From NCBI RefSeq assembly GCF_039534915.1, contig NZ_BAAAWE010000001.1:2666001-2730000 (forward strand): 64,000 bases of DNA, read 5' to 3'. Below, piece after piece: positions 14,629 through 30,213 of the stretch. The position numbers were made by a program, and so were the translations under genes. The DNA is from Streptomyces roseofulvus. Lineage in GTDB: Bacteria > Actinomycetota > Actinomycetes > Streptomycetales > Streptomycetaceae. Below the pieces are notes generated by a model. That model ran no database searches, was not told the DNA's origin, and worked only from the letters and a program-made list of their open reading frames with translations. The first letter of the stretch is position 1. Each line of letters starts with the position of its first letter.

Positions 14629-16176
14629 GTGACGGGGGGGCTTTTGTTCGACGAGGGCCATGGCGCTCACGCACCCGAGTTCCGGCGTGAGCTGGTCGAT
14701 CAGCTGTGCGCGGTGCCGGGGCTCGACGTCCCGGGCAGCCGCGACCTCCTGATCAGCATGCTCGCGGAACGGCTGCCCGAGGTGGGCGACGTCCCGCGGC
14801 ACGGGCGCACCCGGCTGGACATCCTGGAGATCGTCCGCAGCTGTCTGCGCGAACCGCACGGCCTGCGCGAACTCGCCGACGCCCTCACCCTCTACGCCCC
14901 CGGCGCCACCCCCGTCCTCAGGATCCGGGAGCTCGCCGACTCCGTCCCCGCCCCCTCCCCCGGCCCGGACGTCCTCCCGGTGCTGCCCGAGGCCGAGTTA
15001 CGCGCCGTCCGCGCGCGGCTGGCCTCGCTCCGGCACCTCGACGCGCACGGACTGCTGCACGCCGCCGCCGGCGAACTCCCCCTTCCCCCGGCCCCGGTGA
15101 CCGGACTCGGCGAGGCGTTCGACCTCCTCGCCCGGGCCAACGCCCGGCCCGACGGACTCCTCCCGGTGAACGTCCTGATCGAGCACGTGATCACCGCGCT
15201 CGGCGGCTCCGACACCCACCGGAGCGCCGCGGACGAACTGCGCGCCTGGAACGACGACCGGGCCGCCGCGCTCCACCTCGCCCCGCGACTGGCCGCCCTC
15301 CGCGCGGAGCTCGCCCGCGAGGCCGCCGCACAACCCGCACCCGCCTGTCTCGTTGTCCAGTTGTGCAGAAGCGGAATGGACCCGGACCGGTATCTGCTCT
15401 CCCACTGGCGCCAGATCCGCCCCGGCCCCTGGCGGCCCGAGCGCGGCGAGGACCGGCTCGTGACCCTGGCCGAGGTCCCGGCCGCCGTGGGCGAGCTGGT
15501 CGACCGGGCGGAGAAGGAGTGGGCCGGCCGCCCCGGCCGCCCCGTCCTGGAGTTCGTCCTCCCCTTCCACCTGCTCAACCATCCGATGGAGTGGCTGACG
15601 TCCGGATCGGACCTCACCACCGCCCTCTGCCTCACCTACCCGGTGGTCCTGCGCAGTCTGGAGCGGATGCGGGCCAGGGAGCACCACCGCAAGTGGCACA
15701 ACCGCTGGCAGCAGATGCTCGACAGCCCGGACACCGTCTGCCACTGGGACACGGCCGGCCGGCGCGGCCACGACGCCGTCCGGTGGAGCAGCACGCTCAT
15801 CGCCGACGAGCGGCTCGTCTCCGTCGCGCTCGGCGCGCCCCCGCTGCGGGGCCCGGCCGGCCGGCCCTCCTCCCTGGAGACCGCGCTGCGCGCCGGGGTA
15901 CCGCTGGCGGTCTGGGACCGGCGGCCCGAGCCGCCCCCCGAGTTCCGCAGGCGCGCCAAGCGCCTCCTGAAGGGAAAGGCGATCGAACTCCCGCAACGGG
16001 TCAAGAAGTTGCGGAGCGAGGCCGCCACCGCCGCCGCCGGCCAGCGGGACGTCCACGTGGGGCGGCACCTCGCCGTCCTCTTCGACGACCCGAACCGGCT
16101 CGTCGACTGGCCCGGATCGCCGGGGCCGGCCGCCGAGAGCGCACGCGGCGGACACGACGACGAGGGGGAAACATGA
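14629..16176 (+). CDS. VMAP-like adaptor: EAD2 domain plus VMAP C-terminal domain
   Basis: The 515-residue product has an effector-associated domain (EAD2) at about residues 18-103, with the motif PRHG-x2-R-x-DI-x2-IVR-x-C followed by GLR-x-L-x-DALTL. The C-terminal half (about 240-490, containing 'VLEFVLPFHLLNHPMEWL') resembles the VMAP C-terminal domain. VMAP proteins are proposed adaptors in vWA-MoxR conflict systems that recruit effectors through like EAD domains. The next gene is indeed a MoxR ATPase, overlapping by ATGA. Codon 124 is TTA (14998-15000), the rare bldA-read leucine codon. GTG 14629 has GGAG only two bases away; TTG 14644 is an alternative start. Confidence 0.8.
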   Translation: MTGGLLFDEGHGAHAPEFRRELVDQLCAVPGLDVPGSRDLLISMLAERLPEVGDVPRHGRTRLDILEIVRSCLREPHGLRELADALTLYAPGATPVLRIRELADSVPAPSPGPDVLPVLPEAELRAVRARLASLRHLDAHGLLHAAAGELPLPPAPVTGLGEAFDLLARANARPDGLLPVNVLIEHVITALGGSDTHRSAADELRAWNDDRAAALHLAPRLAALRAELAREAAAQPAPACLVVQLCRSGMDPDRYLLSHWRQIRPGPWRPERGEDRLVTLAEVPAAVGELVDRAEKEWAGRPGRPVLEFVLPFHLLNHPMEWLTSGSDLTTALCLTYPVVLRSLERMRAREHHRKWHNRWQQMLDSPDTVCHWDTAGRRGHDAVRWSSTLIADERLVSVALGAPPLRGPAGRPSSLETALRAGVPLAVWDRRPEPPPEFRRRAKRLLKGKAIELPQRVKKLRSEAATAAAGQRDVHVGRHLAVLFDDPNRLVDWPGSPGPAAESARGGHDDEGET

Positions 16177-17291
16177 GCGGTGTCCGTCACCCGGTCGACA
16201 ACAGCCGGAACGGAGGGCACGTCAGCAGCCGCAGCTGGTGGATCTACCGGGGCACCGGCCGGCCGCTGACCGACATCCGCCTCGGCGACGTCCTGCCGCC
16301 GCCGCCCGGCTGGCGGAACTTCGACGGCGGCCCCGTCCTGCCGCCCGTCCCGGCCGAGAGCGCCGAGACCGACCGCCGCCTCGGCGCCGTCGGCCGCGCC
16401 ACCCCCCGGCAGGACGCGCACGACATCGACCTGATCAACACCGCCCTGCTGCTCCGCCGGCCGCTGCTCGTCACCGGCCGCCCCGGCATCGGCAAGTCCA
16501 CCCTCGCCTACCTCGTCGCCCGCGAGCTGGGCCTCGGCCGCGTGCTGCACTGGGGCATCACCTCCCGCAGCACCCTGCGCTCCGGCCTGTACGAGTACGA
16601 CGCCATCGGCCGCGCCCAGGCGTCCCTCGGCGCCCGCGCCCGGGCCGCCGCCGTGCCCGTCCCCGCCCAGCCGGCCGACCCGACGGCGGCGGCCCCCGAC
16701 GCCGTCGCCGGCCCCCGCATCGGCGACTTCGTCCGGCTCGGCCCGCTGGGCACCGCGCTGCTGCCGTACGAACTGCCCCGCGTCCTGCTCATCGACGAGC
16801 TCGACAAGAGCGACATCGACCTGCCCAACGACCTCCTGCACGTCCTGGAGAACGGCTCCTACGACATCCCCGAGCTGGTCCGCGCCCGTCACCAGGAGGG
16901 CACGGCCCGGGTGTTCACCGACGACCCCGACGGCACGGCGCCCGTCACCGACGGGCTCGTGCGCTGCCGCGCCTTCCCGTTCGTCGTCATCACCAGCAAC
17001 GGCGAGCGGCAGTTCCCCGCCGCCTTCCTGCGCCGCTGCGTCCGCCTCGACGTCTCCCCGCCGCGCGAGGACCAGCTCGCCGCCATGATCGCCGCCCACT
17101 TCCGGGACCAGGGCGGCCGGCACGACGCCATGATCCAGACCTTCATGGAGCGCAGCCGGGAGAACGGCGGGCTCGCCGCCGACCAGCTGCTGAACGCCGT
17201 CTACCTGCGGTCGGCGGGCGTCCGGGACGACGACGAGACCTGGGGCGAGCTGCTCGACGCGCTCTGGCGGCGGCTGTCGGGGGCACCCTGA
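16173..17291 (+). CDS. MoxR-type AAA+ ATPase
   Basis: The 372-residue protein has Walker A 'GRPGIGKST' (102-110), Walker B 'VLLIDELDKSD' (about 204-214), sensor 1 'PFVVITSNGER' and the arginine-finger segment 'AFLRRCVRLD'. An N-terminal extension of about 70 residues includes 'RSWWIYRGTGRPL'. MoxR ATPases remodel vWA-domain partners in a chaperone-like way. It is the middle gene of a three-gene overlapping operon: ATGA with the VMAP-like gene before it and TGATG with the vWA-like/NB-ARC gene after it. Such coupling suggests fixed stoichiometry in one complex. Confidence 0.88.
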   Translation: MSGVRHPVDNSRNGGHVSSRSWWIYRGTGRPLTDIRLGDVLPPPPGWRNFDGGPVLPPVPAESAETDRRLGAVGRATPRQDAHDIDLINTALLLRRPLLVTGRPGIGKSTLAYLVARELGLGRVLHWGITSRSTLRSGLYEYDAIGRAQASLGARARAAAVPVPAQPADPTAAAPDAVAGPRIGDFVRLGPLGTALLPYELPRVLLIDELDKSDIDLPNDLLHVLENGSYDIPELVRARHQEGTARVFTDDPDGTAPVTDGLVRCRAFPFVVITSNGERQFPAAFLRRCVRLDVSPPREDQLAAMIAAHFRDQGGRHDAMIQTFMERSRENGGLAADQLLNAVYLRSAGVRDDDETWGELLDALWRRLSGAP

Positions 17292-20200
17292 TGGACGACG
17301 ACGCCGACGACGCCCGCCCGCTCCCCGAGCCGTTCGAGGTCGCGGAGGCGCTGTGGCTGCACGCGTACCAGACGCTCGCGGCCCGCCTCCCGTCCTCCGA
17401 TCCGCCGCGCCCCAGACCGGTGAACCTGCCCGGGCTCCCCGTGCTCGGCCAGGACCCGCCCGCCCCGCCCCTCGACCTCCCCCGCACACCCGGAACCCCC
17501 GGCGAGCCCGCGGCGGGCGGTCCCCGGCCCGACGGCACTGCCGACGGCGCGCCGCCCGGCGCGGCCCACCCGGCCGGACCACCGGGCCTGTTCGCCCGGG
17601 AGTTCGCGCTGGCCCGGGAGCTCCACCGGACGCCCGTGCGGGCCGAACCGCTGCCGGACCTGCGCGACGCCCCCGGCATCGCCCGCCGGCTGCGGCCCCT
17701 CAAGCAGGTCGTCCCCTCCCCGTTCGACGTCGAACTCGACGAGGAGGCCACCGCCGAGCACGCCGCGGAGGACGGCCTCTGGCTGCCCTACACCCGAGCC
17801 GCGGACGAACGCCGCTTCGACCTGGTCCTCGTCGTCGACGACCACGCCACCATGGCGATCTGGGACCAGACGATCGCCGAGTTCACCGCCGTGCTCGAAC
17901 AGCTGGGCGCCTTCCGGGACGTCCGGCTCCGCCGGATGGGAGTCCGCGCGACCCCTCACGGCGACGAGGCCGTGCTCCACGGCCCGGTCGCCGGACACGG
18001 CCCGGCCGGCACGCCCGCCGAACTCCTCGACCGGACCGGCCGCCGCATCGTCCTCGTCCTCACCGACGCCCTCGGACCGCTCTGGCGCGCCGGCGCCGGC
18101 ACCGGGGCGCTGGAGCTGTGGGCGTCGGCCGGGCCGACCGCCGTGGTCCACCTCCTCTCCCAGCGGGACTGGCACCGCACCGCCCTCACCCCCCGGCGGG
18201 TGCGGCTCGGCAGTCCCCGCTCCGGCGCCCCCAACACCGAACTCGCCGTCTCCTTCCCGCCGGAGGAGTACGACCCCTTCGACCCGCCGCCCCCCACCTG
18301 GACCGCGCCCGTCCCCGTCCTGGAACTCGACGCCGACTGGCTCGGCCGCTGGGCCGCCCTGGTGGCCGGCGAGGCCGGCGACTGGACGGACGCCTCCGCC
18401 CTGCTGCTCGGCGCGCCCGCCCCGGAGCCGCCGGAGGATCCCGGACCGCCCGACGACCCCCCGGCCCCGACCGTGCAGGAACGCCTCCGCCGCTTCCGCA
18501 GCCACGCCACCCCCACCGCCTTCCGCCTCGCCACCCATCTGGCCGCCGCCGTCCTCGACCCCCGGCTGGTCAGGGACGTCCGGCACCGGCTCGTCCCGGA
18601 GGCCCAACCGGTGCACGTGGCCGAGCTGTTCCTCAGCGGACTGGTCGAACAGCCCCCGGCCGACGCCCCCTCGGCCGGGGCGCCCGGCACCCCCCTGGAG
18701 TTCGTCGACGGAGCCCGCGAGGCCCTGCTGGCCGGCGCCCTGCGGGCGGACACCGCACGCGTCGCGCACTCGGTCTCGGACTTCTTCGGCGACCGCTCCG
18801 AGGCGGCCCGCCGGCTGCACGGCGCCCTCCTCGCCCCGGAGGACGTACCCGATCCGCCGCTGACGGAGGAGAGCCTGCCGTTCGTCCGCGTCGAACTGGC
18901 GATCCTCCGCGCCCTGTCCGGGCCCTACCTGCGCCGCGCGCACCGGATCAGCACCGCCCTGTCGGGCGGTTCGCCGGGAGAGTCGCTCATGCCCGGCACC
19001 GTGCGTTTGGTCCACGATATCCGCGATACCCCCGTACATCCCGACACGGACGGCTCTTCCATGACCGAGGACACCACCATCCGTCAGCCCGCGCGCGAGG
19101 AGGGGACCGCCCGGCGCACCCCGGTCCCGCACCCCTCCACCGCGCCGACCCCGGCCTCCGGCACCCCGATTCCCGGCTCCGCCACCGGGTCGGTCCCGGT
19201 CCCCGCCCGGCCGCGTCCCTCCGTACCCGCCATCTGGGGCAACGTCCCCCCGAACAACCCCAACTTCGTGGGCCGGGAGGACCTGCTCGCGCAGATCCGG
19301 GACCAGCTGCTGACCGGCGACACCTCGGCCGTACTCCCGCACACCCTGCACGGCATGGGCGGCGTCGGGAAGTCGCAGATCGCCATCGAGTACGTCTACC
19401 GGTACGCCGCCGACTACGACATCGTCTGGTGGATCCCCGCCGAGCAGCCGACGATGATCCTCACCGCCCTCACCGAACTCGCCCAGCGGATGGGCCTGAA
19501 CGTGAGCGACGAGGCCAACCGGGCCGTCCCCGCCGTCCGCGAGGCGCTGCGCCGCGGCGAACCGTACGACCGCTGGCTGCTGGTCTTCGACAACGCGGAG
19601 AACGTGGAGGCCGTCCGCCCCTACTTCCCCACCGGCGGCACCGGGAAGATCCTCATCACCTCCCGGAACCAGGAGTGGGACCGGGTCGCCCGCACCCTCT
19701 CCGTCGACGTCTTCACCCGCGAGGAGAGCAAGGCGCTGCTCCGCCGCCGCGCCCGCGACCTCAGCGACTCCGACGCCGACCGGCTGGCCGAGGCGCTCGG
19801 CGACCTGCCGCTCGCCATCGAGCAGGCGGCGGCCTGGCAGGCCGTCACCGGCATGACCGTCCCCGACTACCTGCGGCTGATCAACGAGAAGATCGCCGAG
19901 CTGATGCTCGAACTCGTCCCCTCCCCCGACTACCCCATGTCGGTCGCCGCCGCCTGGGACGTCTCGCTGCGCCAGCTGGAGCAGCGCAACCCGGCCGCGC
20001 TCCAACTCCTCCAGGTCTGCTCGTTCTTCGCCCCCGAGCCGATCTCCCGCTCGCTCTTCAACAACGCGCGCTCCACCACCATCGCCCCCGAACTCGACGA
20101 GGCCCTGCGGCACCCGATCAAACTCGGCCGCGCCATCCGCGAGATCAACATCTACGCCCTGGCCCGGATCGAGCACCGGCACGACACCATCCAGCTCCAC

Positions 20201-21709
20201 CGCCTGGTCCAGGCCGTGCTGGTCAACCGCATGTCCCCGCAGCAGCAGGCCGACATGCGGCACGGCGCCCACCTGCTGCTCGCCGACGCCAACCCCGGCA
20301 GCCCCAGCACCCGCGCGCTCTGGCCGCGCTACCAGGAGCTGCTGCCGCACGTGGTGGTCTCCCGGACCGTCGAGTGCGAGTCCCCGTGGGCGCGCCGCCT
20401 CATCCGCGAGATGGCCGAGTTCCTGTACGCCTGGGGCGACCACGCGGGCTCCGCCCGGATGGCCCGCGAGGCGCTGGAGATCTGGACGGAGAAGTTCGGC
20501 GCCGAGGACCAGCTCACGCTGGAGATGGCGAAGTGGCTGGCCTTCATCCTCCGGGTGCTCGGCCAGTACGAGGAGGCGGCGGCGATGATGGAGCACACCG
20601 CCGAGGTCTACCTGCGGACCGCGGGCGAGGACGACGAGGGCACCCTCGACGCCCTGATCCAGCACACCAGCGGGCTGCGGCTGCGGGCCGAGATGGCCAA
20701 GGGCCTGGAGATCAACCGGCAGGTGTACGACCGCGCGCTGCGGGCCTTCGGCGAGGACGACCCGGCCACCCTCCGCGCCGCCCACAGCCTCGGCGTCGGC
20801 CTGCGGCTCATGGGCCTCTACCGGGAGGCGCGGGAGTACGACACGGAGACCGCCCGGCTGCGCGCGCTCGCCCTCGGCGACGACCACGTCGAGACCCTGA
20901 ACACCCTCGTCGGCCTGGCCATCGACATCCGCGAGACCGGTGACTACCTGGAGGCCGTCGCCCACCTGGAGGACGTCTACGGCCGCTACCTCACCACCTT
21001 CGGCGAGGACAACCACCGCACCCTCGGCTGCGCCCGCGTCCTCTCCGTCTCCCGGCGCCGCGCCGGCGACCACGCGGGGGCGCTGGCGCTCTGCGAGACG
21101 GCCTGGTCGACGTTCGAGGGCCGGTACGGCCCCGACCACCCGGACGCGGTGGCCTGCGCCGCCAACCTGGTGGTGGACCTGCGCCAGGACGGGCAGCTGC
21201 GCCGCTCCCGGGAGCTGGGCGAGGCGACGCTGGCGCGGTACGCGGCGCAGCTCGGCGCCGGCCACCCGTACACCCTCTCGGCCCGGGTCAACCTGGCGAT
21301 CACCCTGCGCCACCTGGGCGACCTGGACGCCGCCCGGACCCACATCGAGGTGGCGTGGCCGGGGCTGCGCGAGTCGCTGGGCGACGACCACGTGCTCACC
21401 CTGACGGCCGCGATCGGCGCCGCCAGCCAGTACGCCGCCGACGGGCGGCACGAGGAGGCCCTGGAGCTGGACCGGCGGACGCTGGAGGCGCTGGTCCGCG
21501 ACTTCGGCGAGGACCACCCGACCGCGCTGGCCTGCGCGACCAACGTGGTCCTGGACCTGCGGGCGCTGGACCGCGCCACCGAGGCCACCGCCCTGCACAC
21601 CGACACCCTGGCCGGCTTCCGCCGCCGGCTCGGCGAGGACCACCCGGCGACCGCGGCCTCCGCCGCCGGTCGGCGGGCCGACGTCGACATCGCGCCCGTC
21701 CCCTTCTAG
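17291..21709 (+). CDS. vWA-like/NB-ARC/TPR signalling protein (SAV_2336-like N-terminus; FxSxx-COOH-system TPR type)
   Basis: This 1472-residue protein joins three parts. A vWA-like region at about 173-340 has 'FDLVLVVDDHATM' and 'IVLVLTDALGPLW', but the MIDAS Ser-x-Ser is not canonical. A linker follows, then an NB-ARC NTPase with 'NFVGRE' near 658, P-loop GMGGVGKS at 688-695, Walker B 'WLLVFDNAEN', 'ILITSRNQEW', 'LGDLPLAIEQAAAW' and an MHD-equivalent 'LHRLVQ' near 968. From about 1045 to the end are TPR_10/12-type repeats marked by recurring 'G-E/D-D-H/D-P/x-x-T'. It looks like a STAND sensor that oligomerises on ligand recognition. It is the last gene of the operon, starting on the A of the MoxR stop. 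Confidence 0.85.
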   Translation: MDDDADDARPLPEPFEVAEALWLHAYQTLAARLPSSDPPRPRPVNLPGLPVLGQDPPAPPLDLPRTPGTPGEPAAGGPRPDGTADGAPPGAAHPAGPPGLFAREFALARELHRTPVRAEPLPDLRDAPGIARRLRPLKQVVPSPFDVELDEEATAEHAAEDGLWLPYTRAADERRFDLVLVVDDHATMAIWDQTIAEFTAVLEQLGAFRDVRLRRMGVRATPHGDEAVLHGPVAGHGPAGTPAELLDRTGRRIVLVLTDALGPLWRAGAGTGALELWASAGPTAVVHLLSQRDWHRTALTPRRVRLGSPRSGAPNTELAVSFPPEEYDPFDPPPPTWTAPVPVLELDADWLGRWAALVAGEAGDWTDASALLLGAPAPEPPEDPGPPDDPPAPTVQERLRRFRSHATPTAFRLATHLAAAVLDPRLVRDVRHRLVPEAQPVHVAELFLSGLVEQPPADAPSAGAPGTPLEFVDGAREALLAGALRADTARVAHSVSDFFGDRSEAARRLHGALLAPEDVPDPPLTEESLPFVRVELAILRALSGPYLRRAHRISTALSGGSPGESLMPGTVRLVHDIRDTPVHPDTDGSSMTEDTTIRQPAREEGTARRTPVPHPSTAPTPASGTPIPGSATGSVPVPARPRPSVPAIWGNVPPNNPNFVGREDLLAQIRDQLLTGDTSAVLPHTLHGMGGVGKSQIAIEYVYRYAADYDIVWWIPAEQPTMILTALTELAQRMGLNVSDEANRAVPAVREALRRGEPYDRWLLVFDNAENVEAVRPYFPTGGTGKILITSRNQEWDRVARTLSVDVFTREESKALLRRRARDLSDSDADRLAEALGDLPLAIEQAAAWQAVTGMTVPDYLRLINEKIAELMLELVPSPDYPMSVAAAWDVSLRQLEQRNPAALQLLQVCSFFAPEPISRSLFNNARSTTIAPELDEALRHPIKLGRAIREINIYALARIEHRHDTIQLHRLVQAVLVNRMSPQQQADMRHGAHLLLADANPGSPSTRALWPRYQELLPHVVVSRTVECESPWARRLIREMAEFLYAWGDHAGSARMAREALEIWTEKFGAEDQLTLEMAKWLAFILRVLGQYEEAAAMMEHTAEVYLRTAGEDDEGTLDALIQHTSGLRLRAEMAKGLEINRQVYDRALRAFGEDDPATLRAAHSLGVGLRLMGLYREAREYDTETARLRALALGDDHVETLNTLVGLAIDIRETGDYLEAVAHLEDVYGRYLTTFGEDNHRTLGCARVLSVSRRRAGDHAGALALCETAWSTFEGRYGPDHPDAVACAANLVVDLRQDGQLRRSRELGEATLARYAAQLGAGHPYTLSARVNLAITLRHLGDLDAARTHIEVAWPGLRESLGDDHVLTLTAAIGAASQYAADGRHEEALELDRRTLEALVRDFGEDHPTALACATNVVLDLRALDRATEATALHTDTLAGFRRRLGEDHPATAASAAGRRADVDIAPVPF

Positions 21710-21771: not shown

Positions 21772-23097
21772 TCAGGGGCTGGGGGCGGCCTCCGCGTCGG
21801 CGGCGACCGGCGAGGCGGCGCCCGCCCCCGACCGCCCTTCCGGCACCCTCCGCTCGACCGGCGGCCGGGGCGGCGTCCCGTCCGGGCGGTGCAGCACCCG
21901 GATCAGCGGCCCGGTGGCGGCCGTGGTGAGGAGCGCCATCACGACGAGCAGCGCGTAGAGCCGGGGGCCGATCACGCCGGCCTGGAGGCCGACGTTGAGC
22001 ACGATCAGCTCGGTCAGGCCGCGGGTGTTGAGCAGGACGCCGATCAGCAGCGCGTCCCGCCACGACCGGCGGGCGCCCCGGGCCGAGACCGTCCCTGCCC
22101 CCACCTTGCCCGCCACCGCCGCGGCGCATATCACCGCGAGGACGAGCAGGTCGGAGGCGCGCAGTCGGCCGAGCACGACGGCCGTCCCGGAGATCGCGAA
22201 GAACATCGGCAGCAACAGCCCGCCGATGTCCTGGAGCGGGCCGAGGATCCGGGCGTCCGGGGAGCCGTCGGGCAGCCGGGGCATCACCAGCCCGGCGAGC
22301 AGCGCGCCGAAGATGACGTGCAGGCCGAGGGCGCTGGTCGCCCCCGCGGAGGCGAGGGCGAGGGTGACCGCGAGCGGGACGCGGGCCGCCGTGCCGCCCG
22401 TCCGCCGGAACCACCGGGCCAGCAGGGGCCGTACGGCGAAGAGCATGACCAGCACGTAGCCGGCGAGCAGGACGGCCTTGAGCGCCCACTCGCGCGCCGA
22501 GCCGTGCGCGCCGCCGACCAGGACGACCGCGAGCACCGGCCAGCTCAGGGCGTCGATGATGCCCGCCGCGGCCATGGCGATCGTGCCGGGTCCGGTCCGG
22601 GCGATCCCCTGGTCCTTGATGATGCTGGCGAGGACGGGCACGGCCGTGATGGAGAGCGCGACCGCCATGTAGAGCACGAAGGTGGCGTCGACCGGGCGGC
22701 CGTCGTTGACCTCGGCGAAGGCGTCCGGGAGGGCCAGGACGATGCCCGCGCCGAGCAGCATGGGGAGGACGAATCCGGTCACCGAGACGGCGGTGACGGC
22801 CTTCTGGTGGCGGAGCAGCCCGAGGTCGAGCTCGTATCCGACGGCGAAGAGGAAGAAGACCAGGGCGACTTGGGCCAGCGAGGTGAGGACGGGCTGGATC
22901 TGCTCCGGGAACAGCTTCTCGTACACCCCGCCGGGCAGCAGGCCGAGCAGACTCGGACCGAGCGCGATGCCCGCGAACAGCTGTCCGATGACGGGGGGTT
23001 GGCCGAGTCTCCGGGCCAGCGCGCCGGCGGCGTGCGACGCGGCGATCACCACGGCGAGAGCGGCGACGACATGCGTGACGACAGAGTCCGTGCTCAC
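21772..23097 (-). CDS. Cation:proton antiporter (CPA2 family)
   Basis: The 441-residue protein has about 12-13 membrane segments. It has the family's 'RRLGQPPVIGQLFAGIALGPSLLG' first repeat unit, 'FFLFAVGYELDLGLLR', and 'LLNTRGLTELIVLNVGLQAGVI' near the C-terminus. It exchanges Na+ or K+ for H+. There is no fused RCK/TrkA domain; the tail of about 45 residues is Pro/Arg-rich. GTG 23097 is preferred to GTG 23103 because of GGAAGG spacing. It sits on the opposite strand between the two halves of the EAD2 system. Whether it belongs to that system is unknown. Confidence 0.88.
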   Translation of the reverse strand: MSTDSVVTHVVAALAVVIAASHAAGALARRLGQPPVIGQLFAGIALGPSLLGLLPGGVYEKLFPEQIQPVLTSLAQVALVFFLFAVGYELDLGLLRHQKAVTAVSVTGFVLPMLLGAGIVLALPDAFAEVNDGRPVDATFVLYMAVALSITAVPVLASIIKDQGIARTGPGTIAMAAAGIIDALSWPVLAVVLVGGAHGSAREWALKAVLLAGYVLVMLFAVRPLLARWFRRTGGTAARVPLAVTLALASAGATSALGLHVIFGALLAGLVMPRLPDGSPDARILGPLQDIGGLLLPMFFAISGTAVVLGRLRASDLLVLAVICAAAVAGKVGAGTVSARGARRSWRDALLIGVLLNTRGLTELIVLNVGLQAGVIGPRLYALLVVMALLTTAATGPLIRVLHRPDGTPPRPPVERRVPEGRSGAGAASPVAADAEAAPSP

Positions 23098-23141
23098 CGG
23101 CACACCCCTTCCGAGGCATGCGCGACCTTGCGCCCGGCCCC

Positions 23142-23154
23142 CTACACAGTGTAG
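23142..23154. promoter_or_regulatory. Palindrome in divergent promoter region
   Basis: CTACAC-a-GTGTAG lies between the antiporter (leftward) and the hydrolase-caspase unit (rightward). Leftward, TACACT inside it could be the antiporter -10. The region marks the start of a separate rightward transcription unit beginning near 23160. Confidence 0.4.
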
Positions 23155-23222
23155 CCGTCGGAGCGGCAAGTGCCTTATCGTGAGAGCCATTTGGGGTATG
23201 CCACCGCGGACGGGGGTCAGCA

Positions 23223-24437
23223 GTGACGACGGTGCTCTTCGTACACGGGACGGGGGTGCGCGAGCCCGGGTACTCCGAGGGGCTGGAGCGGGTGCGGGCC
23301 GGGCTGCGGCCGTCACGGCCCGACGTCACCGTCACTCCCTGTTACTGGGGCGGACGGGCGGGCTCCGCGCTGCGCTCCGGGGGCCTGTCGGTGCCGGGGT
23401 ACGGGACCGGGCGCGACGTGGCGGACCGGGGTGCCCGGGGGACGGACGGCGGCGACGAGGACGTCGAGCTGTGGGGGCTGCTCTATCTCGATCCGCTGCT
23501 CGAACTGCGGCTGCTCGCCGCGGAGTCCGGCGGCCGCCGGGAGCTGCCCCCGGGCGCCGTGCCGCCGGGCGAGGCGCTCTCCGCGGCCGCCCTGGCGCTC
23601 GGCGCGGACGAGCGGCTGCGGGGACTGCTCGACTCCGCGGGGATCGGCGGGGAGTTCGCCGCCGCGGTGGCCTCCGTCGTCACCTCGCCGGACGGCCGGG
23701 GCTTCCTGCGCTCCCCCGCCGCCGCCGACGGACCGGACGTCCTGGCCCGGGCGTTCGCCGCCGAGGCGGTACGCCGCCGGGCCGAGCGGAGCGGATCGGC
23801 CGCGGCCTTCGACGGGACCGCCCGCGACGAGGCCGTCGAGCGGATCGCCGCCCTGCTCGCCGCCGCCCTCACGGACGGGGCCGGGACCCACCGGGGGCCG
23901 GTGACCCGGGGGGTGAAGCGGCTCGCCGGGCGGCTGGCGCTCGGCCTGGCCTCCGCGCAGGCGGTGAAGCGGCGGTCCGCCCTCACCGACGCCGCGCATC
24001 CGGCGGCCGGGGACGTCCTGCTCTATCTGGCCCGGGGCGGCGCGATCCGCGAGATCGTGGCGGAGGCGGTGCGGGCCGCCGAACCGCCGGTGGTGCTCCT
24101 CGCGCACAGCCTCGGCGGCATCGCCTGCCTGGACCTGCTGGTCGAACGGGCGCTGCCGGAGGTCGCCCTGCTGGTGACGGTCGGCTCGCAGGCACCGTTC
24201 CTGTACGAGCTGGGGGCGCTGCCGAGCCTGGAGCACGGCCGGCCGCTGCCCGCCCACGTACCGCGCTGGATCAACGTGTACGACCCCCGGGACCTGCTCG
24301 GCTACATCGGCGCCGGGGTCTTCCCCGGCCGGGTCGAGGACGTCGCCGTGGACGGCCGGCAGCCGTTCCCGCTCGCGCACAGCGCCTACTGGGGCAATCC
24401 GGAGCTGTACCGGCTCCTCGCGGCGGAGCTGCCGTGA
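23223..24437 (+). CDS. Alpha/beta hydrolase (lipase/PGAP1-like), putative effector
   Basis: The 404-residue protein has the oxyanion segment 'VLFVHGTGV' at the N-terminus and a nucleophile elbow 'LLAHSLGGIACLDLL' (about 295-308). A candidate acid is in 'WINVYDPRDLLGYI' and a candidate base is His in 'PLAHSAYWGN'. About 190 residues inserted between the first strand and the elbow are Ala/Arg-rich and could form a lid. It likely hydrolyses an ester or amide of a lipid or peptide. The stop overlaps the caspase-like gene start (GTGA), tying it to the EAD2 system, where alpha/beta hydrolases are known effector types. Confidence 0.78.
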   Translation: MTTVLFVHGTGVREPGYSEGLERVRAGLRPSRPDVTVTPCYWGGRAGSALRSGGLSVPGYGTGRDVADRGARGTDGGDEDVELWGLLYLDPLLELRLLAAESGGRRELPPGAVPPGEALSAAALALGADERLRGLLDSAGIGGEFAAAVASVVTSPDGRGFLRSPAAADGPDVLARAFAAEAVRRRAERSGSAAAFDGTARDEAVERIAALLAAALTDGAGTHRGPVTRGVKRLAGRLALGLASAQAVKRRSALTDAAHPAAGDVLLYLARGGAIREIVAEAVRAAEPPVVLLAHSLGGIACLDLLVERALPEVALLVTVGSQAPFLYELGALPSLEHGRPLPAHVPRWINVYDPRDLLGYIGAGVFPGRVEDVAVDGRQPFPLAHSAYWGNPELYRLLAAELP

Positions 24438-25573
24438 CCGGGGCCCGCCCGGAGCGGACGTACGCGGTCGTCGTCGGCGCGGAGCGGTACGCGGCCGGCC
24501 CGTCCTGGGACCTGCCGGGGCCCGCCGCCGACGCCCGCCGCTTCACCGCCTGGCTGCGCGGGCGCGGGGTGCCCGCGTCGCACATCGCGCTGCTGCTGGC
24601 GCCGCTGCCGGGGGCGGGCGGGCCGGAGGTCGACGTACCGGAGGGGGCCGCCGGGCGGGAGGCCGTGCAGGAGGTGCTCACCCGGCGGCTGCCGGGGCTG
24701 GAGGGCGACCTGCTGTGGGTGTTCTGGGGCGGGCACGGGGTCACCGACCCGCAGGGGCACCGGCGGCTCTTCTACGCCGACGCCGGCCCGGACGACCGGC
24801 GCAACCTCGACCTGGACGCGTGGCTGACCGCCTTCTCCACCGACCTCGTGCCCGGCTTCCGGCGGCAGATCTGGCTGGTGGACTCCTGCCAGACCTTCGT
24901 CGAGGACCTGATGCTCGCGCGCTCGCTGCCCCAGGAACTCCCGCCGGGCGGCGACCGGTTGCCGGGCCGGGAGCAGTTCGTGCTGCTGGCCTCCGGGCGG
25001 GGGCAGCGGGCGGCCAACGATCCGGTGCGGCAGACCGGGGCGTTCTCCCGCGCCGTGCTCGCGGCGCTGGCCGCTGCGGACGGCACGGGCGCCTGGCCGC
25101 CGGACATGGCGGCGCTCGCGGACACCGTGCTGCGGGAGTTCACCGGCGGCGGCCAGCGGCCGACCTCGCTCTGGCACCGCTCCTGGGCGGGCGACGAGCA
25201 CCGCTTCGACGGCTCCCCCGCGCCCGCGCCGACCGTGCCCGCCCCGCGGCGGGCCGTGGAGGAGCCGGTGCCGGACGCGGCCCTGGCCGCGCTGATCGGC
25301 CTGCTCGCCGACTGGCCCGGCGTCACCGACCAGAACCAGCGGCAGCTCGTCCTCGGGATGCTCCCCGGCGACCTGGCCGGGTCCATCCCCCGGCACGGGG
25401 CCGCCCGGCCCGACATCATCAGCATCGTCCGGACCTGCCGACGCCATCCCGGCGGCCTCCGCGCCCTGGTCGACGCCCTCACCCTGCTCGAACCGGGCTC
25501 GCGGGAGCAGCTCCTGCTCGCGGAGTGGGCGGAGTGCTGGCTGGGGCCCGCACCAGGGGGCGCACCCGGCTGA
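24434..25573 (+). CDS. Caspase-like protease with C-terminal EAD2 domain
   Basis: The 379-residue protein begins with a caspase-fold domain: 'TYAVVVGAERYA', catalytic His101 in 'FWGGHGVT' and catalytic Cys152 in 'LVDSCQTF'. A Pro/Ala linker (about 262-280) leads to an EAD2 domain at about 282-372. That domain shares PRHG, DI-x2-IVR-x-C, GLR-x-L-x-DALTL and PG with the N-terminus of the VMAP-like protein at 14629. Like EADs are thought to bind each other, so activated VMAP complex could recruit and trigger this protease. Family members cleave after basic or acidic residues; specificity here is not readable. It overlaps the hydrolase gene by four bases. Confidence 0.87.
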   Translation: MTGARPERTYAVVVGAERYAAGPSWDLPGPAADARRFTAWLRGRGVPASHIALLLAPLPGAGGPEVDVPEGAAGREAVQEVLTRRLPGLEGDLLWVFWGGHGVTDPQGHRRLFYADAGPDDRRNLDLDAWLTAFSTDLVPGFRRQIWLVDSCQTFVEDLMLARSLPQELPPGGDRLPGREQFVLLASGRGQRAANDPVRQTGAFSRAVLAALAAADGTGAWPPDMAALADTVLREFTGGGQRPTSLWHRSWAGDEHRFDGSPAPAPTVPAPRRAVEEPVPDAALAALIGLLADWPGVTDQNQRQLVLGMLPGDLAGSIPRHGAARPDIISIVRTCRRHPGGLRALVDALTLLEPGSREQLLLAEWAECWLGPAPGGAPG

Positions 25574-25651: not shown

Positions 25652-25939
25652 ATGCACACGTCCGACGCCTACACGGGGCCGGAGCGCACGGCACACGAGC
25701 ACACGGGCCACGACGGCCCGACGTACCACCACACGGCACACGAACGCCCGGAAGCGGAGCACGCGGCACCGGCGTACCTGGGATCGGAGCTGGTCGATCT
25801 CAGCGACGTCCCGCTGTCCGCCCTCCGGTCGCGGCATCCGCGGCTGCACGCGGGGTCGCTGGAGCGGCTGCTCCGCCAGGTCGAGCGGCCGCGGGTGAAC
25901 TTCGCCGGCGGGTCCGAGCCGCCCAAGCGGTTCGACTGA
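25652..25939 (+). CDS. Small histidine-rich peptide, candidate RiPP precursor related to FxsA
   Basis: The 95-residue product starts at ATG 25652, which has AGGGGG six bases upstream; ATG 25646 is too close. The first 40 residues hold eight histidines. The second half, 'SELVDLSDVPLSALRS' then 'LERLLRQVERPRV', resembles the leader of FxSxx-COOH peptides. The C-terminus ends Pro-Lys-Arg-Phe-Asp and does not show the FxSxx pattern. The hydroxylase homologue starts 21 bases downstream behind its own GAGGAG. The peptide is probably its substrate, with Asn-Phe-Ala-Gly-Gly-Ser and the Phe-Asp end as candidate sites, which is inference. Confidence 0.7.
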   Translation: MHTSDAYTGPERTAHEHTGHDGPTYHHTAHERPEAEHAAPAYLGSELVDLSDVPLSALRSRHPRLHAGSLERLLRQVERPRVNFAGGSEPPKRFD

Positions 25940-25960
25940 CGGTCCGCCGGGAGGAGATCC

Positions 25961-27739
25961 GTGCAGACCGACGCAGGTCACCCGCCGGCCCGTGCCGCGC
26001 ACCATCTCGTCCCCTCGGCGGACTTCGACGCCCTGGCCGCCGGCCGGGGCGGCCCGGACACCGTCCGCTTCCTGCGGACGACCGAGTACAGCAGGCGGCT
26101 CCTGCTGCTCCGGGCGCTGCTCGACACGGCGGCGCGGACCCCCGGCGCGCTGGGGCCGCTGCCGTCCGTGGACAGCGCGTGGGCGGCGCTGGCGGCCGCC
26201 CAGGAGCGGGCCCCGGAGGAGTTCCGGGAGCTGCTGCTCCATCCGCAGGTGGGCAGCTGGCTCGGCCACGGGCTGCGCCGGCTGCGGCACACCGCCTGGG
26301 GCGACGGGCCGCTCTGGACCGACCTCGGGCAGGTGTACGCGCTCTGCGCCGTCGCCGCGCTGCGCGCCGGGCTGCCGCTGTCCACCACCGTGCCGCTGCG
26401 GGACGGCACCGTGATGTTCCCGGGCCTCGGGCTCGCGGTGCTGCCGGGGCGCCCGGCCCTGGGGACGGCGGAGGTGGCGGTGGCGGCGGGCCGGCTGACG
26501 GTCGAGCCGCACCGGGAGGCCGTGGGCCCGCCCGCCGCGCCGGGGGGCGACGCCCCCGGCTGGCTGGCGCTGCGCGGGCTGCACGCGCGCGTGGCGGGGC
26601 GGCCGGTGGGCTGCCTCCTGGATGACGTCGATCCCTACCGTGACCTGGGGGACCCGCTGCCGCCGGCCCGGCTCGCCCCGGCGGCGGCGGCCGGCTGGCA
26701 GGACGGGTTCCGGGGGGCGTTCGAGGTCCTGGAGGCGTGCGACCCGGAGGCGGCGGAGGCGCTGGCGGTGGGGTTACGGAGCCTGACGCCGGTGGACCCG
26801 TCGCCGACCGGGGTGGTGCTCAGCGCCTCGTCCGGCGACGCCTTCGGCGGTCTGCTGACCTCGCTGCCGCCGGACCCGGTGACCTTCGCGGTCACCCTGG
26901 TCCACGAGTTCCAGCACACCAAACTGGGCGCGCTGCTGCACCTGCTGACGCTGGAGCGGGACGGCGGCGAGGAACGGCACCACGCCCCCTGGCGGGACGA
27001 CCCCCGCCCGCTGAGCGGCCTGCTCCAGGGGGCGTACGCCTTCCTGGGCATCACCGACTTCTGGGCCCGGCACCTGGACCGCGCCCCCGCGGCCGAACGG
27101 GCTTCGGCCGCCTTCGAGTTCGCGTTCGCCCGCCGGCAGACCCGGGAGGCCGTCCGGACCCTCGCCGCCGACCCCGCGCTCACGGCCCACGGGCGCCGTT
27201 TCGTGGCCGGCATGAGCGCCCGCCTCGACACCTGGGAGTCCGACGGCCGGGTGGGCCCGGAGGTGGACGCGTGGGCGGCGCTGGCCGCCGACGACCACCG
27301 CACCGAGTGGCGGATCCGCCATCTGGCCCCGGCGCCCGCCGACGTCCGCGCCCTGGCCGAGTCCTTCGTCGCCGGGGCCCCGCCCCCCGACCTCCCGCCG
27401 CCCGTCCTCACTCCCGACCCGACCCCGCGCTGGTCCCACACCCGCGTCCGTCTGATCCGCCACCTCCTCACCCCGTCGGCCACCGCCCGCCCCGCCGCCC
27501 CGGCCGCCGACCACGCCCTGCTCGCCGGCGACCCCGCGGCCGCCGCGGCCTACACCGGCCTGCTGGCCGAGGACCCGGACTCCCCGGAGGCGTGGACGGG
27601 CCTGGTCCTCGCCGTCACCAGGGCCGCCCCGCCGCCCCGCGGCCTCCTCGACCGCCCGGAACTCCTCCGCCCCCTCCACCGCGAGCTCCGCACGACCTCC
27701 CCCCACGCCCTCGCCCGCTGGCTCGCGGCCGCCCGGTGA
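25961..27739 (+). CDS. HExxH-motif peptide beta-hydroxylase homologue
   Basis: The 592-residue protein carries 'VTLVHEFQHTKLGALLHLL' with HEFQH at 315-319, and 'LSGLLQGAYAFLGITDFW' about 55 residues later. Both match the TIGR04267 family (alpha-ketoglutarate HExxH peptide beta-hydroxylases) that accompanies FxSxx-COOH peptides. Such enzymes hydroxylate side chains of a precursor peptide. Usually a radical-SAM maturase (FxsB) sits beside it; none is present here. Codon 272 is TTA (26774-26776), so translation should need the bldA tRNA. GTG 25961 has GAGGAG four bases upstream. Confidence 0.82.
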   Translation: MQTDAGHPPARAAHHLVPSADFDALAAGRGGPDTVRFLRTTEYSRRLLLLRALLDTAARTPGALGPLPSVDSAWAALAAAQERAPEEFRELLLHPQVGSWLGHGLRRLRHTAWGDGPLWTDLGQVYALCAVAALRAGLPLSTTVPLRDGTVMFPGLGLAVLPGRPALGTAEVAVAAGRLTVEPHREAVGPPAAPGGDAPGWLALRGLHARVAGRPVGCLLDDVDPYRDLGDPLPPARLAPAAAAGWQDGFRGAFEVLEACDPEAAEALAVGLRSLTPVDPSPTGVVLSASSGDAFGGLLTSLPPDPVTFAVTLVHEFQHTKLGALLHLLTLERDGGEERHHAPWRDDPRPLSGLLQGAYAFLGITDFWARHLDRAPAAERASAAFEFAFARRQTREAVRTLAADPALTAHGRRFVAGMSARLDTWESDGRVGPEVDAWAALAADDHRTEWRIRHLAPAPADVRALAESFVAGAPPPDLPPPVLTPDPTPRWSHTRVRLIRHLLTPSATARPAAPAADHALLAGDPAAAAAYTGLLAEDPDSPEAWTGLVLAVTRAAPPPRGLLDRPELLRPLHRELRTTSPHALARWLAAAR

Positions 27740-29385: not shown

Positions 29386-30213
29386 ATGCGCGGCCGGACG
29401 ACGCGTCGTCGGAGCAGGACCAGGGGGGCGCTCCTCGCGCTCGTCCTCCTCTGCACCGGGGCCGCCCCGCTGACCGGCTGCTCCTCCGGGTCGGAGGAGG
29501 CGGACCGGACCTCCGGGACCGACACCTCCCCGGACCCCACCGACGCCTCGACGACCGGCGGGACGACGGGGGGAGGCGACACGGACGAGGACGCGCGGGA
29601 GCGGCGGAGGCAGGAGAAGGACAGCGGAAGCTTCAGCCGCGCGGGCCGGCTCTCCGACGACTTCGACGGCTTCTTTCCGGAGATCTACGAGAAGTTCGTG
29701 GAGAACCCCTCGTCCGAACCCTATGTGGGCACGGTCACGGCCGTGGACTGCTCGCCGGACGGGAACCCCCAGCCCATGGCCCCGTCGAGCCAGACCGTCA
29801 CCGTCCCGCCGAACACGGAGGGGAACGTCTTCCGGGTGTCCTTCGACTTCCCTCAGGGCCAGGGCGACGTGACCTCCAACACGTCGCGCATCATCTGCGT
29901 GACCCTCCGGGACGAGGGCGGGGTCAGGGGCGAGGACAAGGACCCGCTCTCCGTCCAACTGAGCCCCACCGGCGAAGAGACCGGGGAGACGACCACCGGG
30001 GAGACGACGACCGGGGAAACGACCACGGGCGAGACGACGACCGGGGAAACGACGACTGGGGAAACGACCACCGGCGAGACGACCACCGGCGAAACGACCA
30101 CCGGCGAGACCACCACCGGGGAAACGACCACAGGCGAGACCACCACCGGTGAGACCACCGACGGGGGCACCGGCGAGTCCGGTGAGTCCGGCGACTCCGG
30201 CGGGCTCGGCTGA
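29386..30213 (+). CDS. Lipoprotein with C-terminal TGETT repeats
   Basis: The 275-residue protein has a basic N-terminus, a hydrophobic core and the lipobox 'LTGC' (Cys about 32), so it is a lipid-anchored extracellular protein. A middle domain of about 120 residues ('FSRAGRLSDDFDGFFPEIYEKFVENPSSEPYVGTVTAVDC') has two cysteines, near 120 and 171, that could pair. I do not recognise its family. The last third is a twelve-fold Thr-Gly-Glu-Thr-Thr repeat and a Gly/Ser-rich end, probably a flexible or glycosylated stalk. The integral membrane protein gene follows after 23 bp. Confidence 0.75.
   Translation: MRGRTTRRRSRTRGALLALVLLCTGAAPLTGCSSGSEEADRTSGTDTSPDPTDASTTGGTTGGGDTDEDARERRRQEKDSGSFSRAGRLSDDFDGFFPEIYEKFVENPSSEPYVGTVTAVDCSPDGNPQPMAPSSQTVTVPPNTEGNVFRVSFDFPQGQGDVTSNTSRIICVTLRDEGGVRGEDKDPLSVQLSPTGEETGETTTGETTTGETTTGETTTGETTTGETTTGETTTGETTTGETTTGETTTGETTTGETTDGGTGESGESGDSGGLG
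29980..30159 (+). repeat. Twelve tandem 15-bp units encoding TGETT
   Basis: Each unit encodes Thr-Gly-Glu-Thr-Thr. The copies differ mainly at synonymous third positions (GGG/GGC/GGT, GAG/GAA, ACG/ACC), so selection for the amino-acid repeat is likely and the array is not a fresh slippage product. In-frame length variation between strains is expected. Confidence 0.95.

What the first reader, a model, noticed from the sequence alone, without database searches (positions are those of the whole stretch)
25652..27739. Orphan HExxH hydroxylase and precursor peptide without a radical-SAM partner
The peptide has an FxsA-like leader but ends Lys-Arg-Phe-Asp instead of FxSxx. The adjacent 592-residue protein has the HEFQH motif of alpha-ketoglutarate peptide hydroxylases. 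FxSxx-COOH loci normally include the cyclophane-forming maturase FxsB, and often FxsC; neither is in the window. Hydroxylation may be the only modification here, giving a reduced or new RiPP type tied to a conflict system.
Basis: partly seen in the sequence, partly recalled or inferred. Interest (0 to 1): 0.85.

Follow-up and report, generated by a model that had tools for sequence, protein, structure and literature searches.

The report
Peptide and oxygenase in immunity operon
A small precursor peptide and the iron enzyme next to it form a standard part of a widespread predicted immune operon of Streptomyces and related bacteria; the 'missing' partner enzyme is normally missing in this type, and what remains open is which chemical change the enzyme makes near the peptide's conserved end.

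Summary
In detail: a 95-97 aa FxsA-like peptide ending KRFD is followed 21 bp later by a 592 aa HEFQH protein, and the single-contig genome shows no FxsB, no FxsC and no second aKG-HExxH enzyme. 'Orphan' and 'reduced' are wrong. The pair sits in a VMAP-MoxR-vWA ternary conflict operon whose vWA protein is fused to an NB-ARC/TPR (FxSxx_TPR) region. This matches the RxD-type peptide-processing system of Kaur et al. 2020, which is described without radical SAM. In 100 same-genus and 80 wider actinobacterial loci, FxsB-less pairs form a coherent group with their own operon architecture, and R-x-[DE] ends exactly at the C-terminus in 61 of 122 distinct peptides (shuffled mean 1.7). The enzyme models onto solved HExxH oxygenases (SjiH Z 32; ChlB Z 24), so it is most likely an Fe/2-oxoglutarate oxygenase rather than the 'metallopeptidase' of 2020. 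Possibly new is the parallel between R-x-D tails and the ARMD and R(V/T)DN tails of peptides modified by other aKG-HExxH enzymes. That suggests tail-directed oxidation, perhaps oxidative trimming where Gly or Ala precedes the tail. This locus, with Lys there, should only be hydroxylated. No chemistry has been shown.

The parts
14629..16176 (+). VMAP: EAD2 + VMAP-M0 + VMAP-C, core of the ternary conflict system (start approximate)
   Evidence: Pfam VMAP-C 169.8 bits, EAD2 72.9, VMAP-M0 68.1
16164..17291 (+). MoxR-type AAA+ ATPase (start approximate)
   Evidence: frame read; AAA 23.9 bits with cut-off 21.2; the MoxR label follows from its place beside VMAP and vWA, not from a MoxR model
17297..21709 (+). 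vWA (SAV_2336 N-terminal) - NB-ARC (AP-ATPase) - TPR fusion, FxSxx_TPR/FxsT type (start approximate)
   Evidence: NF041121 387 bits and NF040586 893 bits; NB-ARC and TPR
23223..24437 (+). alpha/beta-hydrolase-like protein, 404 aa
   Evidence: weak Ser_hydrolase match, 15.1 bits, below its cut-off; neighbour kept in orthologues L148-L154
24434..25573 (+). caspase-like peptidase with C-terminal EAD2
   Evidence: EAD2 80.7 bits; caspase_w_EACC1 28.1 bits, below its cut-off; PADLOC caspase 6.7e-07; start GTG read from sequence
25652..25939 (+). precursor peptide (alternative start 25646): leader with SELVDLSDVPLSALR..., tail NFAGGSEPPKRFD-COOH
25961..27739 (+). aKG-HExxH peptide oxygenase, 592 aa: oxygenase core about 14-444, C-terminal helical extension about 450-592

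Best explanation
This is an RxD-type peptide-processing module built into a VMAP-MoxR-vWA ternary conflict operon. The leader of the small precursor (SELVDLSDVPLSALR...) docks on the neighbouring HExxH enzyme. That enzyme, an Fe(II)/2-oxoglutarate oxygenase, oxidises one or more residues of the short C-terminal segment next to the conserved R-x-D-COOH tail (here N-F-A-G-G-S-E-P-P-K-R-F-D), most likely by beta-hydroxylation, with no radical-SAM step. The finished peptide most likely serves the operon's own vWA-NB-ARC-TPR protein as a signal or partner, while VMAP-EAD2 recruits caspase-EAD2 as effector or signalling protease. Supported by computation here: operon composition, family and fold of the enzyme, absence of FxsB and FxsC, conservation of leader and tail. 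Inferred: leader docking (from a cis-linked AlphaFold2 model), the reaction and its site, EAD-mediated recruitment (the coupling principle of Kaur et al.), and the role in immunity.
For: Operon: VMAP, AAA, vWA-NB-ARC-TPR fusion, caspase-EAD2, matching the RxD description in PMC7159879. Enzyme family TIGR04267, 178 bits. AF2 model pLDDT 93.0: SjiH Z 32.3 over 403 residues, ChlB HExxH oxygenase Z 23.8 over 316, next row 8.8. H315, E316, H319, W344, R345, P348, R349 invariant in 65 of 65 enzymes (this one plus the 64 of 69 FxsB-less ones of fitting length), D347 in 64; the W-R-x-D-x-R block is also in both solved relatives. FxsB-less loci: vWA and FxSxx_TPR in one ORF in 55 of 69, against 2 of 31 FxsB loci. 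The FxsB label needs 4 changes on a 121-row enzyme tree, shuffled mean 29 (quick tree without bootstrap). Tail R-x-[DE]-COOH in 61 of 122 distinct peptides, shuffled mean 1.72, maximum 6. Peptide dN/dS 0.23-0.65. Cis-linked AF2: leader 41-80 at mean pLDDT 91-96 per block, and enzyme residues 14-18 change from coil to strand. Literature: aKG-HExxH enzymes are reported to hydroxylate His, Asp, Phe, Gln and Pro in peptides, including standalone ones acting on peptides ending ARMD.
Against: No chemistry is shown for any enzyme of this subfamily. Kaur et al. call it a peptidase, and PflC shows proteolytic activity without the leader (PMC12636437 abstract and discussion), so proteolysis is not excluded. 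In the cis-linked model residues 87-114, which hold the tail, are under pLDDT 50, so the modified residue is unknown. 61 of 122 tails lack terminal R-x-[DE]; orthologue L149 ends GPGGGN beside an intact enzyme gene. A peptide was not found upstream in 7 of 69 FxsB-less same-genus loci nor by the profile in 16 of the 80 wider loci, of which three were then found by eye. The 2-oxoglutarate site and third metal ligand were not mapped.
Confidence: 0.72

Rival explanations
1. The enzyme is a zincin-like metallopeptidase that cuts the precursor and frees a C-terminal signal or toxin peptide, as Kaur et al. 2020 proposed; no oxidation occurs.
For: HExxH motif; stated in PMC7159879; PflC shows hydrolytic cleavage when the leader is missing; aminopeptidase N chains appear in the structural list at Z 5.0-5.3.
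Against: The two strongest structural matches belong to the HExxH oxygenases (Z 32.3 and 23.8); the W-R-x-D-x-R block shared with them is invariant or nearly so; NCBI's curated family names it aKG-HExxH.
Confidence: 0.15
2. The enzyme cleaves oxidatively before the R-x-D tail, leaving an amidated shortened peptide, like PflC/PosC before ARMD (this overlaps with the best explanation: same enzyme class, other outcome).
For: Tail resemblance; residue before R is Gly or Ala in 30 of 61 R-x-[DE] tails; PosC cleaves at Ala of ARMD.
Against: Here the residue before R is Lys; PosA A91Q and A91S were not cleaved. That residue varies among orthologues (PKRFD, TRRVD, PGRAD).
Confidence: 0.12
3. A degenerate FxSxx system that lost FxsB and now makes nothing.
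For: No FxsB or FxsC in the genome; no FxSxx tail.
Against: The FxsB-less state is widespread and clustered on the enzyme tree; catalytic residues invariant; peptide under purifying selection; both ORFs open.
Confidence: 0.02
4. An FxsB-like radical SAM enzyme acts in trans on this peptide.
For: Other genomes of the genus carry FxsB, many at other loci.
Against: This genome has no FxsB: best 28.8 bits, cut-off 370; 23 of 51 genomes with such a system have none at E 1e-40.
Confidence: 0.03

Closest known systems
RxD-type peptide-processing system of VMAP-ternary conflict systems (Kaur et al. 2020, eLife, PMC7159879)
   Same: HExxH protein plus small variable protein ending R-x-D, no radical SAM, AP-ATPase/TPR fused to vWA, VMAP and MoxR partners
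   Different: They read the enzyme as a metallopeptidase; here family, motifs and fold point to a 2-oxoglutarate oxygenase. An alpha/beta-hydrolase-like gene and an antiporter also sit in this operon
FxSxx-COOH / FxsB cyclophane RiPP system (TIGR04268, TIGR04269)
   Same: Similar leader, an aKG-HExxH enzyme, an FxSxx_TPR protein
   Different: No FxSxx end, no FxsB, no FxsC; the enzyme has a C-terminal extension of about 140 aa that most FxsB-associated enzymes of the set lack
ChlB HExxH domain and SjiH (PDB 8s5f, 22ob/22nu)
   Same: Fold, HExxH, W-R-x-D-x-R
   Different: 8s5f is the HExxH domain of a fused radical SAM-HExxH protein, and 22nu is named 'Radical SAM core domain-containing protein'; ours is standalone
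PflC/PosC (PMC12636437) and PesO (PMC13060819)
   Same: Standalone aKG-HExxH enzymes whose peptides end ARMD or R(V/T)DN
   Different: Other leader (PflA is NHLP-type), partner MNIO enzymes, no conflict operon mentioned; the similarity of tails may be convergent or chance

Membership tests
aKG-HExxH peptide beta-hydroxylase (TIGR04267/IPR026337) | score above curated cut-off | tested here: met
   178.1 bits vs 40
aKG-HExxH peptide beta-hydroxylase (TIGR04267/IPR026337) | HExxH and W-R-x-D-x-R blocks | tested here: met
aKG-HExxH peptide beta-hydroxylase (TIGR04267/IPR026337) | fold of solved members | tested here: met
   SjiH Z 32.3, rmsd 2.6, 403 aligned; ChlB HExxH Z 23.8, rmsd 3.2, 316 aligned
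aKG-HExxH peptide beta-hydroxylase (TIGR04267/IPR026337) | 2-oxoglutarate/Fe(II)-dependent oxidation of a peptide | not testable with these tools
   needs enzyme assay
RxD-type peptide-processing system (Kaur et al. 2020) | small variable protein with C-terminal R-x-D | tested here: met
   KRFD
RxD-type peptide-processing system (Kaur et al. 2020) | no radical SAM-SPASM partner | tested here: met
   no FxsB in the genome
RxD-type peptide-processing system (Kaur et al. 2020) | AP-ATPase with TPRs fused to the vWA protein | tested here: met
   one ORF with SAV_2336_NTERM, NB-ARC, TPR
RxD-type peptide-processing system (Kaur et al. 2020) | VMAP and MoxR partners | tested here: met
   VMAP-C and VMAP-M0; AAA; MoxR identity from position, not from a MoxR model
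RxD-type peptide-processing system (Kaur et al. 2020) | peptide released by the enzyme | not testable with these tools
   needs biochemistry
FxSxx-COOH / FxsB RiPP | C-terminal FxSxx | tested here: not met
   ends KRFD; 15.2 bits vs cut-off 28
FxSxx-COOH / FxsB RiPP | FxsB maturase | tested here: not met
FxSxx-COOH / FxsB RiPP | FxsC | tested here: not met
   none here, present in 4 of 6 genomes of the same call
FxSxx-COOH / FxsB RiPP | FxSxx-system TPR protein | tested here: met
   NF040586 893 bits vs 300
PflC/PosC oxidative-cleavage enzymes | peptide with Ala before R-x-D and a Gln run | tested here: not met
   Lys before RFD, no Gln run
zincin metallopeptidase | peptidase fold and hydrolysis | tested here: inconclusive
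   HExxH present; aminopeptidase N only at Z 5.0-5.3; hydrolysis not testable

The most novel reading that the evidence does not exclude
The C-terminal R-x-[DE]-COOH tail is a recognition tag used by several distant lineages of aKG-HExxH oxygenases (VMAP RxD peptides, Pseudomonas ARMD, Bacillus-related R(V/T)DN). In actinobacterial immune operons the residue before the tag sets the outcome. With Gly or Ala there (30 of 61 tails) the enzyme trims the tag oxidatively and leaves a C-terminal amide; with Lys, Gln, Glu or Ser (this locus) it only hydroxylates. The product is an oxidised peptide ligand that gates an NB-ARC/TPR immune protein: a bacterial immune receptor licensed by an O2- and 2-oxoglutarate-dependent RiPP modification.
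Probability: 0.15. Interest if true: 0.78.

Novelty: new member of a known kind. Interest (0 to 1): 0.42.

Why it matters
It resolves an apparent anomaly: the missing FxsB is the rule for RxD-type systems, not a loss. It also ties the enzyme of these conflict systems, filed as a metallopeptidase in 2020, to a family since found to oxidise peptides, which makes an open guess (a processed peptide acting as signal or toxin in VMAP systems) testable with two genes in E. coli and mass spectrometry.

Tried and rejected
Rejected: 'orphan' or decayed FxSxx locus; FxsB in trans; chance ORF. The idea that R-x-D is a universal tag of aKG-HExxH substrates is weakened by the 61 of 122 tails without it, by orthologue L149, and by BpmA, described in the passages read as carrying AFHAFRF followed by Arg and Ser with no such tail mentioned (its whole sequence was not seen).

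Led nowhere or limited: the cis-linked AlphaFold2 model left the tail unmodelled. No coordinates could be inspected, so pairing of leader and enzyme strands is inferred from secondary-structure strings only. PADLOC gave only a weak caspase hit. The paper on the fused radical SAM-HExxH enzyme (doi 10.1038/s41557-024-01596-9) is not held; what I say of it comes from how other papers cite it. A search for FxsC in this genome alone rang in no control, so it was repeated with genomes that carry FxsB. Papers seen: PMC7159879 section 24 whole plus passages; PMC12636437 abstract, introduction, discussion and two of three parts of results; PMC13060819, PMC12257519, PMC12707348, PMC12452194, PMC8195603 passages only; others only as search listings. 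The listings showed no paper that joins RxD peptides to oxygenases, but they cover open-licence PMC papers only and few of the papers were opened.

Limits of counts: the 100 loci are the top 100 matches after this gene itself, all one genus, found with this enzyme as query; several are cut by contig ends. FxsB in a locus was called at more than 150 bits by tblastn with 13 FxsB seeds. The 80 loci are the best 80 of 532 confirmed, with 7 kb flanks. In one search the peptide was sought only directly upstream of the enzyme, so its 0 of 31 peptides for FxsB loci is an artefact of that window (there the peptide lies before FxsB). joins both sets after dropping loci with FxsB near the enzyme and peptides above E 1e-4, and adds the window's peptide and three orthologue peptides (L150, L153, L154) that the ORF filter had missed. 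Some loci of the two sets are the same contig (for example L032 and L148); identical 45-residue ends were merged. Orthologue L151 has an FxsB match about 4 kb beyond the enzyme gene on the other strand and was kept as FxsB-less for this pair.
Full report
What is there. The window (from an 8.2 Mb genome in one contig) holds a 95-97 aa ORF ending NFAGGSEPPKRFD (25646 or 25652 to 25939) and, 21 bp later, a 592 aa ORF with HEFQH (25961-27739). The enzyme is a strong member of TIGR04267 (178 bits, cut-off 40); the peptide reaches only 15.2 bits on TIGR04268 FxSxx-COOH (cut-off 28), over model positions 1-39 of 44. Orthologues keep the ATG at 25652. Between the SEL motif and the stop, dN/dS against seven orthologues (L148-L154 in order) is 0.23, 0.64, 0.40, 0.34, 0.46, 0.65 and 0.45, so the small ORF is a gene.

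Surroundings. Upstream on the same strand lie a VMAP protein with EAD2 (14629-16176), an AAA protein (MoxR-type by position), a vWA (SAV_2336) - NB-ARC - TPR fusion ending at 21709 (NF041121 387 bits, NF040586 FxSxx_TPR 893 bits), an alpha/beta-hydrolase-like protein (23223-24437) and a caspase-like protein with EAD2 (24434-25573). A KefB-like antiporter (21772-23316) lies on the other strand in between.

FxsB and FxsC. FxsB is not found in the genome (best 28.8 bits, cut-off 370), although 129 of 199 same-genus genomes match at E 1e-40 and 123 are over the cut-off. FxsC is not found here nor in the nearest relative's genome (G076), and is found in 4 of the 6 genomes searched together (the first search had no positive control). 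The genome has one aKG-HExxH match, this gene; the fused FxsBH model matches only this same gene, below its cut-off.

Comparison set. I took the top 100 matches of the enzyme in the genus after the gene itself. 69 loci have no FxsB in the stretch fetched and 31 have it. In the 69, a leader-type peptide lies directly upstream of the enzyme in 62; vWA and FxSxx_TPR share one ORF in 55, not in 9, and FxSxx_TPR was not found in 5. In the 31, they share an ORF in 2, not in 28, not found in 1. On a tree of 121 enzymes the FxsB label needs 4 changes (shuffled mean 29, quick method). 23 of 51 genomes with an FxsB-less system (enzyme over 195 bits, this genome included) have no FxsB at E 1e-40. A second set of 80 loci from named Actinobacteria (Streptomyces, Actinoplanes, Amycolatopsis, Lentzea, Micromonospora and others) gives the same picture: 3 of 80 loci hold an FxsB match, and 40 of 80 have a peptide with R-x-[DE] in its last eight residues.

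The tail. Over both sets, 122 distinct peptides: R-x-[DE] is the very C-terminus in 61 (shuffled last 15 residues: mean 1.72, maximum 6), R-x-D in 44; after clustering at 70% identity 46 of 96. The residue before R is G 20, A 10, E 9, K 8, Q 8, S 4, M 1, R 1; a Pro lies within the five residues before R in 42 of 61. None ends FxSxx. The orthologues end NFAGGSEPPKRFD (L148, as here), NFAGDPGPGRAD, NFAGGENPTRRVD, NFATDPGPGRAD, NFAGGDGQPGRAD (two) and, as an exception, HFGEQEGPGGGN. So N-F-A-G and R-x-D are kept in most; Ser, Lys and Phe are not. Other FxsB-less peptides have unrelated ends (SCVS, GSC, AGSDGS).

The enzyme. AlphaFold2 gives pLDDT 93.0, pTM 0.92. Foldseek and VIA-align put SjiH (22ob; Z 32.3, 403 residues, 31% identity) and the ChlB HExxH oxygenase domain (8s5f; Z 23.8, 316 residues) far above all other rows (next 8.8). 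H315, E316, H319, W344, R345, P348 and R349 are invariant in 65 of 65 enzymes compared (this one and the 64 of 69 FxsB-less ones of fitting length), D347 in 64, and the W-R-x-D-x-R block is present in both solved relatives. FxsB-associated enzymes mostly lack a C-terminal extension of about 140 residues that FxsB-less ones carry (gaps in 27-31 of 31 at six conserved positions). A cis-linked model (peptide stop read as Trp; alignment of 23 linked and 23 enzyme-only rows) gives the leader 41-80 block means of 91-96 with a strand at 44-50, and turns enzyme residues 14-18 from coil to strand; residues 87-114, tail included, stay under 50. I read this as leader docking by strand addition; the linkage in cis makes it suggestive only.

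Known kind. Kaur et al. 2020 (PMC7159879; section 24 read whole) describe peptide-processing systems in VMAP-ternary loci, with four peptide types including RxD. They place the SPASM radical SAM gene with the FxSxx type and a different radical SAM domain with the FtsH-associated type, and state that the AP-ATPase/TPR is fused to the vWA protein in the RxD and acidic types. The locus meets each point that can be tested. They call the enzyme a metallopeptidase. Since then aKG-HExxH enzymes have been shown to hydroxylate peptides; PflC and PosC hydroxylate Gln and cut oxidatively before ARMD, leaving an amide (PMC12636437), and PesO hydroxylates a Pro in a peptide family with a C-terminal R(V/T)DN motif (PMC13060819). 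I therefore file the locus as a new member of a known kind, with the chemistry re-read as oxygenation.

How it most likely works. The leader docks, the tail enters the iron site, and one or more residues beside R-F-D are hydroxylated. With Lys in the place of the Ala that PosC needs for cleavage (A91Q and A91S variants were not cut), I expect no trimming here. The product then serves the vWA-NB-ARC-TPR protein, the component whose architecture follows the peptide type. The classification is well supported (about 0.9), oxygenase chemistry is likely (about 0.75), and the ligand role is a guess (about 0.35). The parallel of R-x-D tails across three enzyme lineages may be chance or convergence: half of the tails here lack it, and none is mentioned for BpmA in the passages read.

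Noticed in passing
21772-23316 (-): KefB/CPA2-like antiporter on the opposite strand between the vWA-NB-ARC-TPR gene and the hydrolase gene. A homologue is found in 6 loci of the first set and 9 of the second (two pairs of these are the same contig), including all seven close orthologues L148-L154, so it may belong to this operon type.
   Followed up: partly
25652-25780: The leader's N-terminus carries a His/Thr-rich repeat-like stretch (TAHEHTGHDGPTYHHTAHERPEAEH) that close orthologues (L032/L148, L150) lack.
   Followed up: no
L153 and L154, enzyme gene from 7001: Two orthologous enzymes (S. narbonensis, S. pyxinicus) carry a low-complexity insertion of over 100 residues (Pro/Gly/Asp-rich or Asp/Gly/Thr/Ala-rich) inside the oxygenase.
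   Followed up: no
L039, L043, L049 (unnamed same-genus genomes G159, G196, G101): Two divergent peptide-HExxH pairs on opposite strands near one FxSxx_TPR gene, with different tails (for example AERYD and QRDEA): possibly paired or diversifying peptides.
   Followed up: no
L036-L038, L042, L047 and relatives: FxsB-less enzymes with HEAQH whose peptides mostly end in SCVS or a similar Cys-containing tail instead of RxD; others end GSC or AGC. These tails are not among the four types of Kaur et al. as worded in their section 24.
   Followed up: no
29386-30213 (+): Lipoprotein-like ORF with a long Glu-Thr-Thr-Thr-Gly repeat tract near its end.
   Followed up: no
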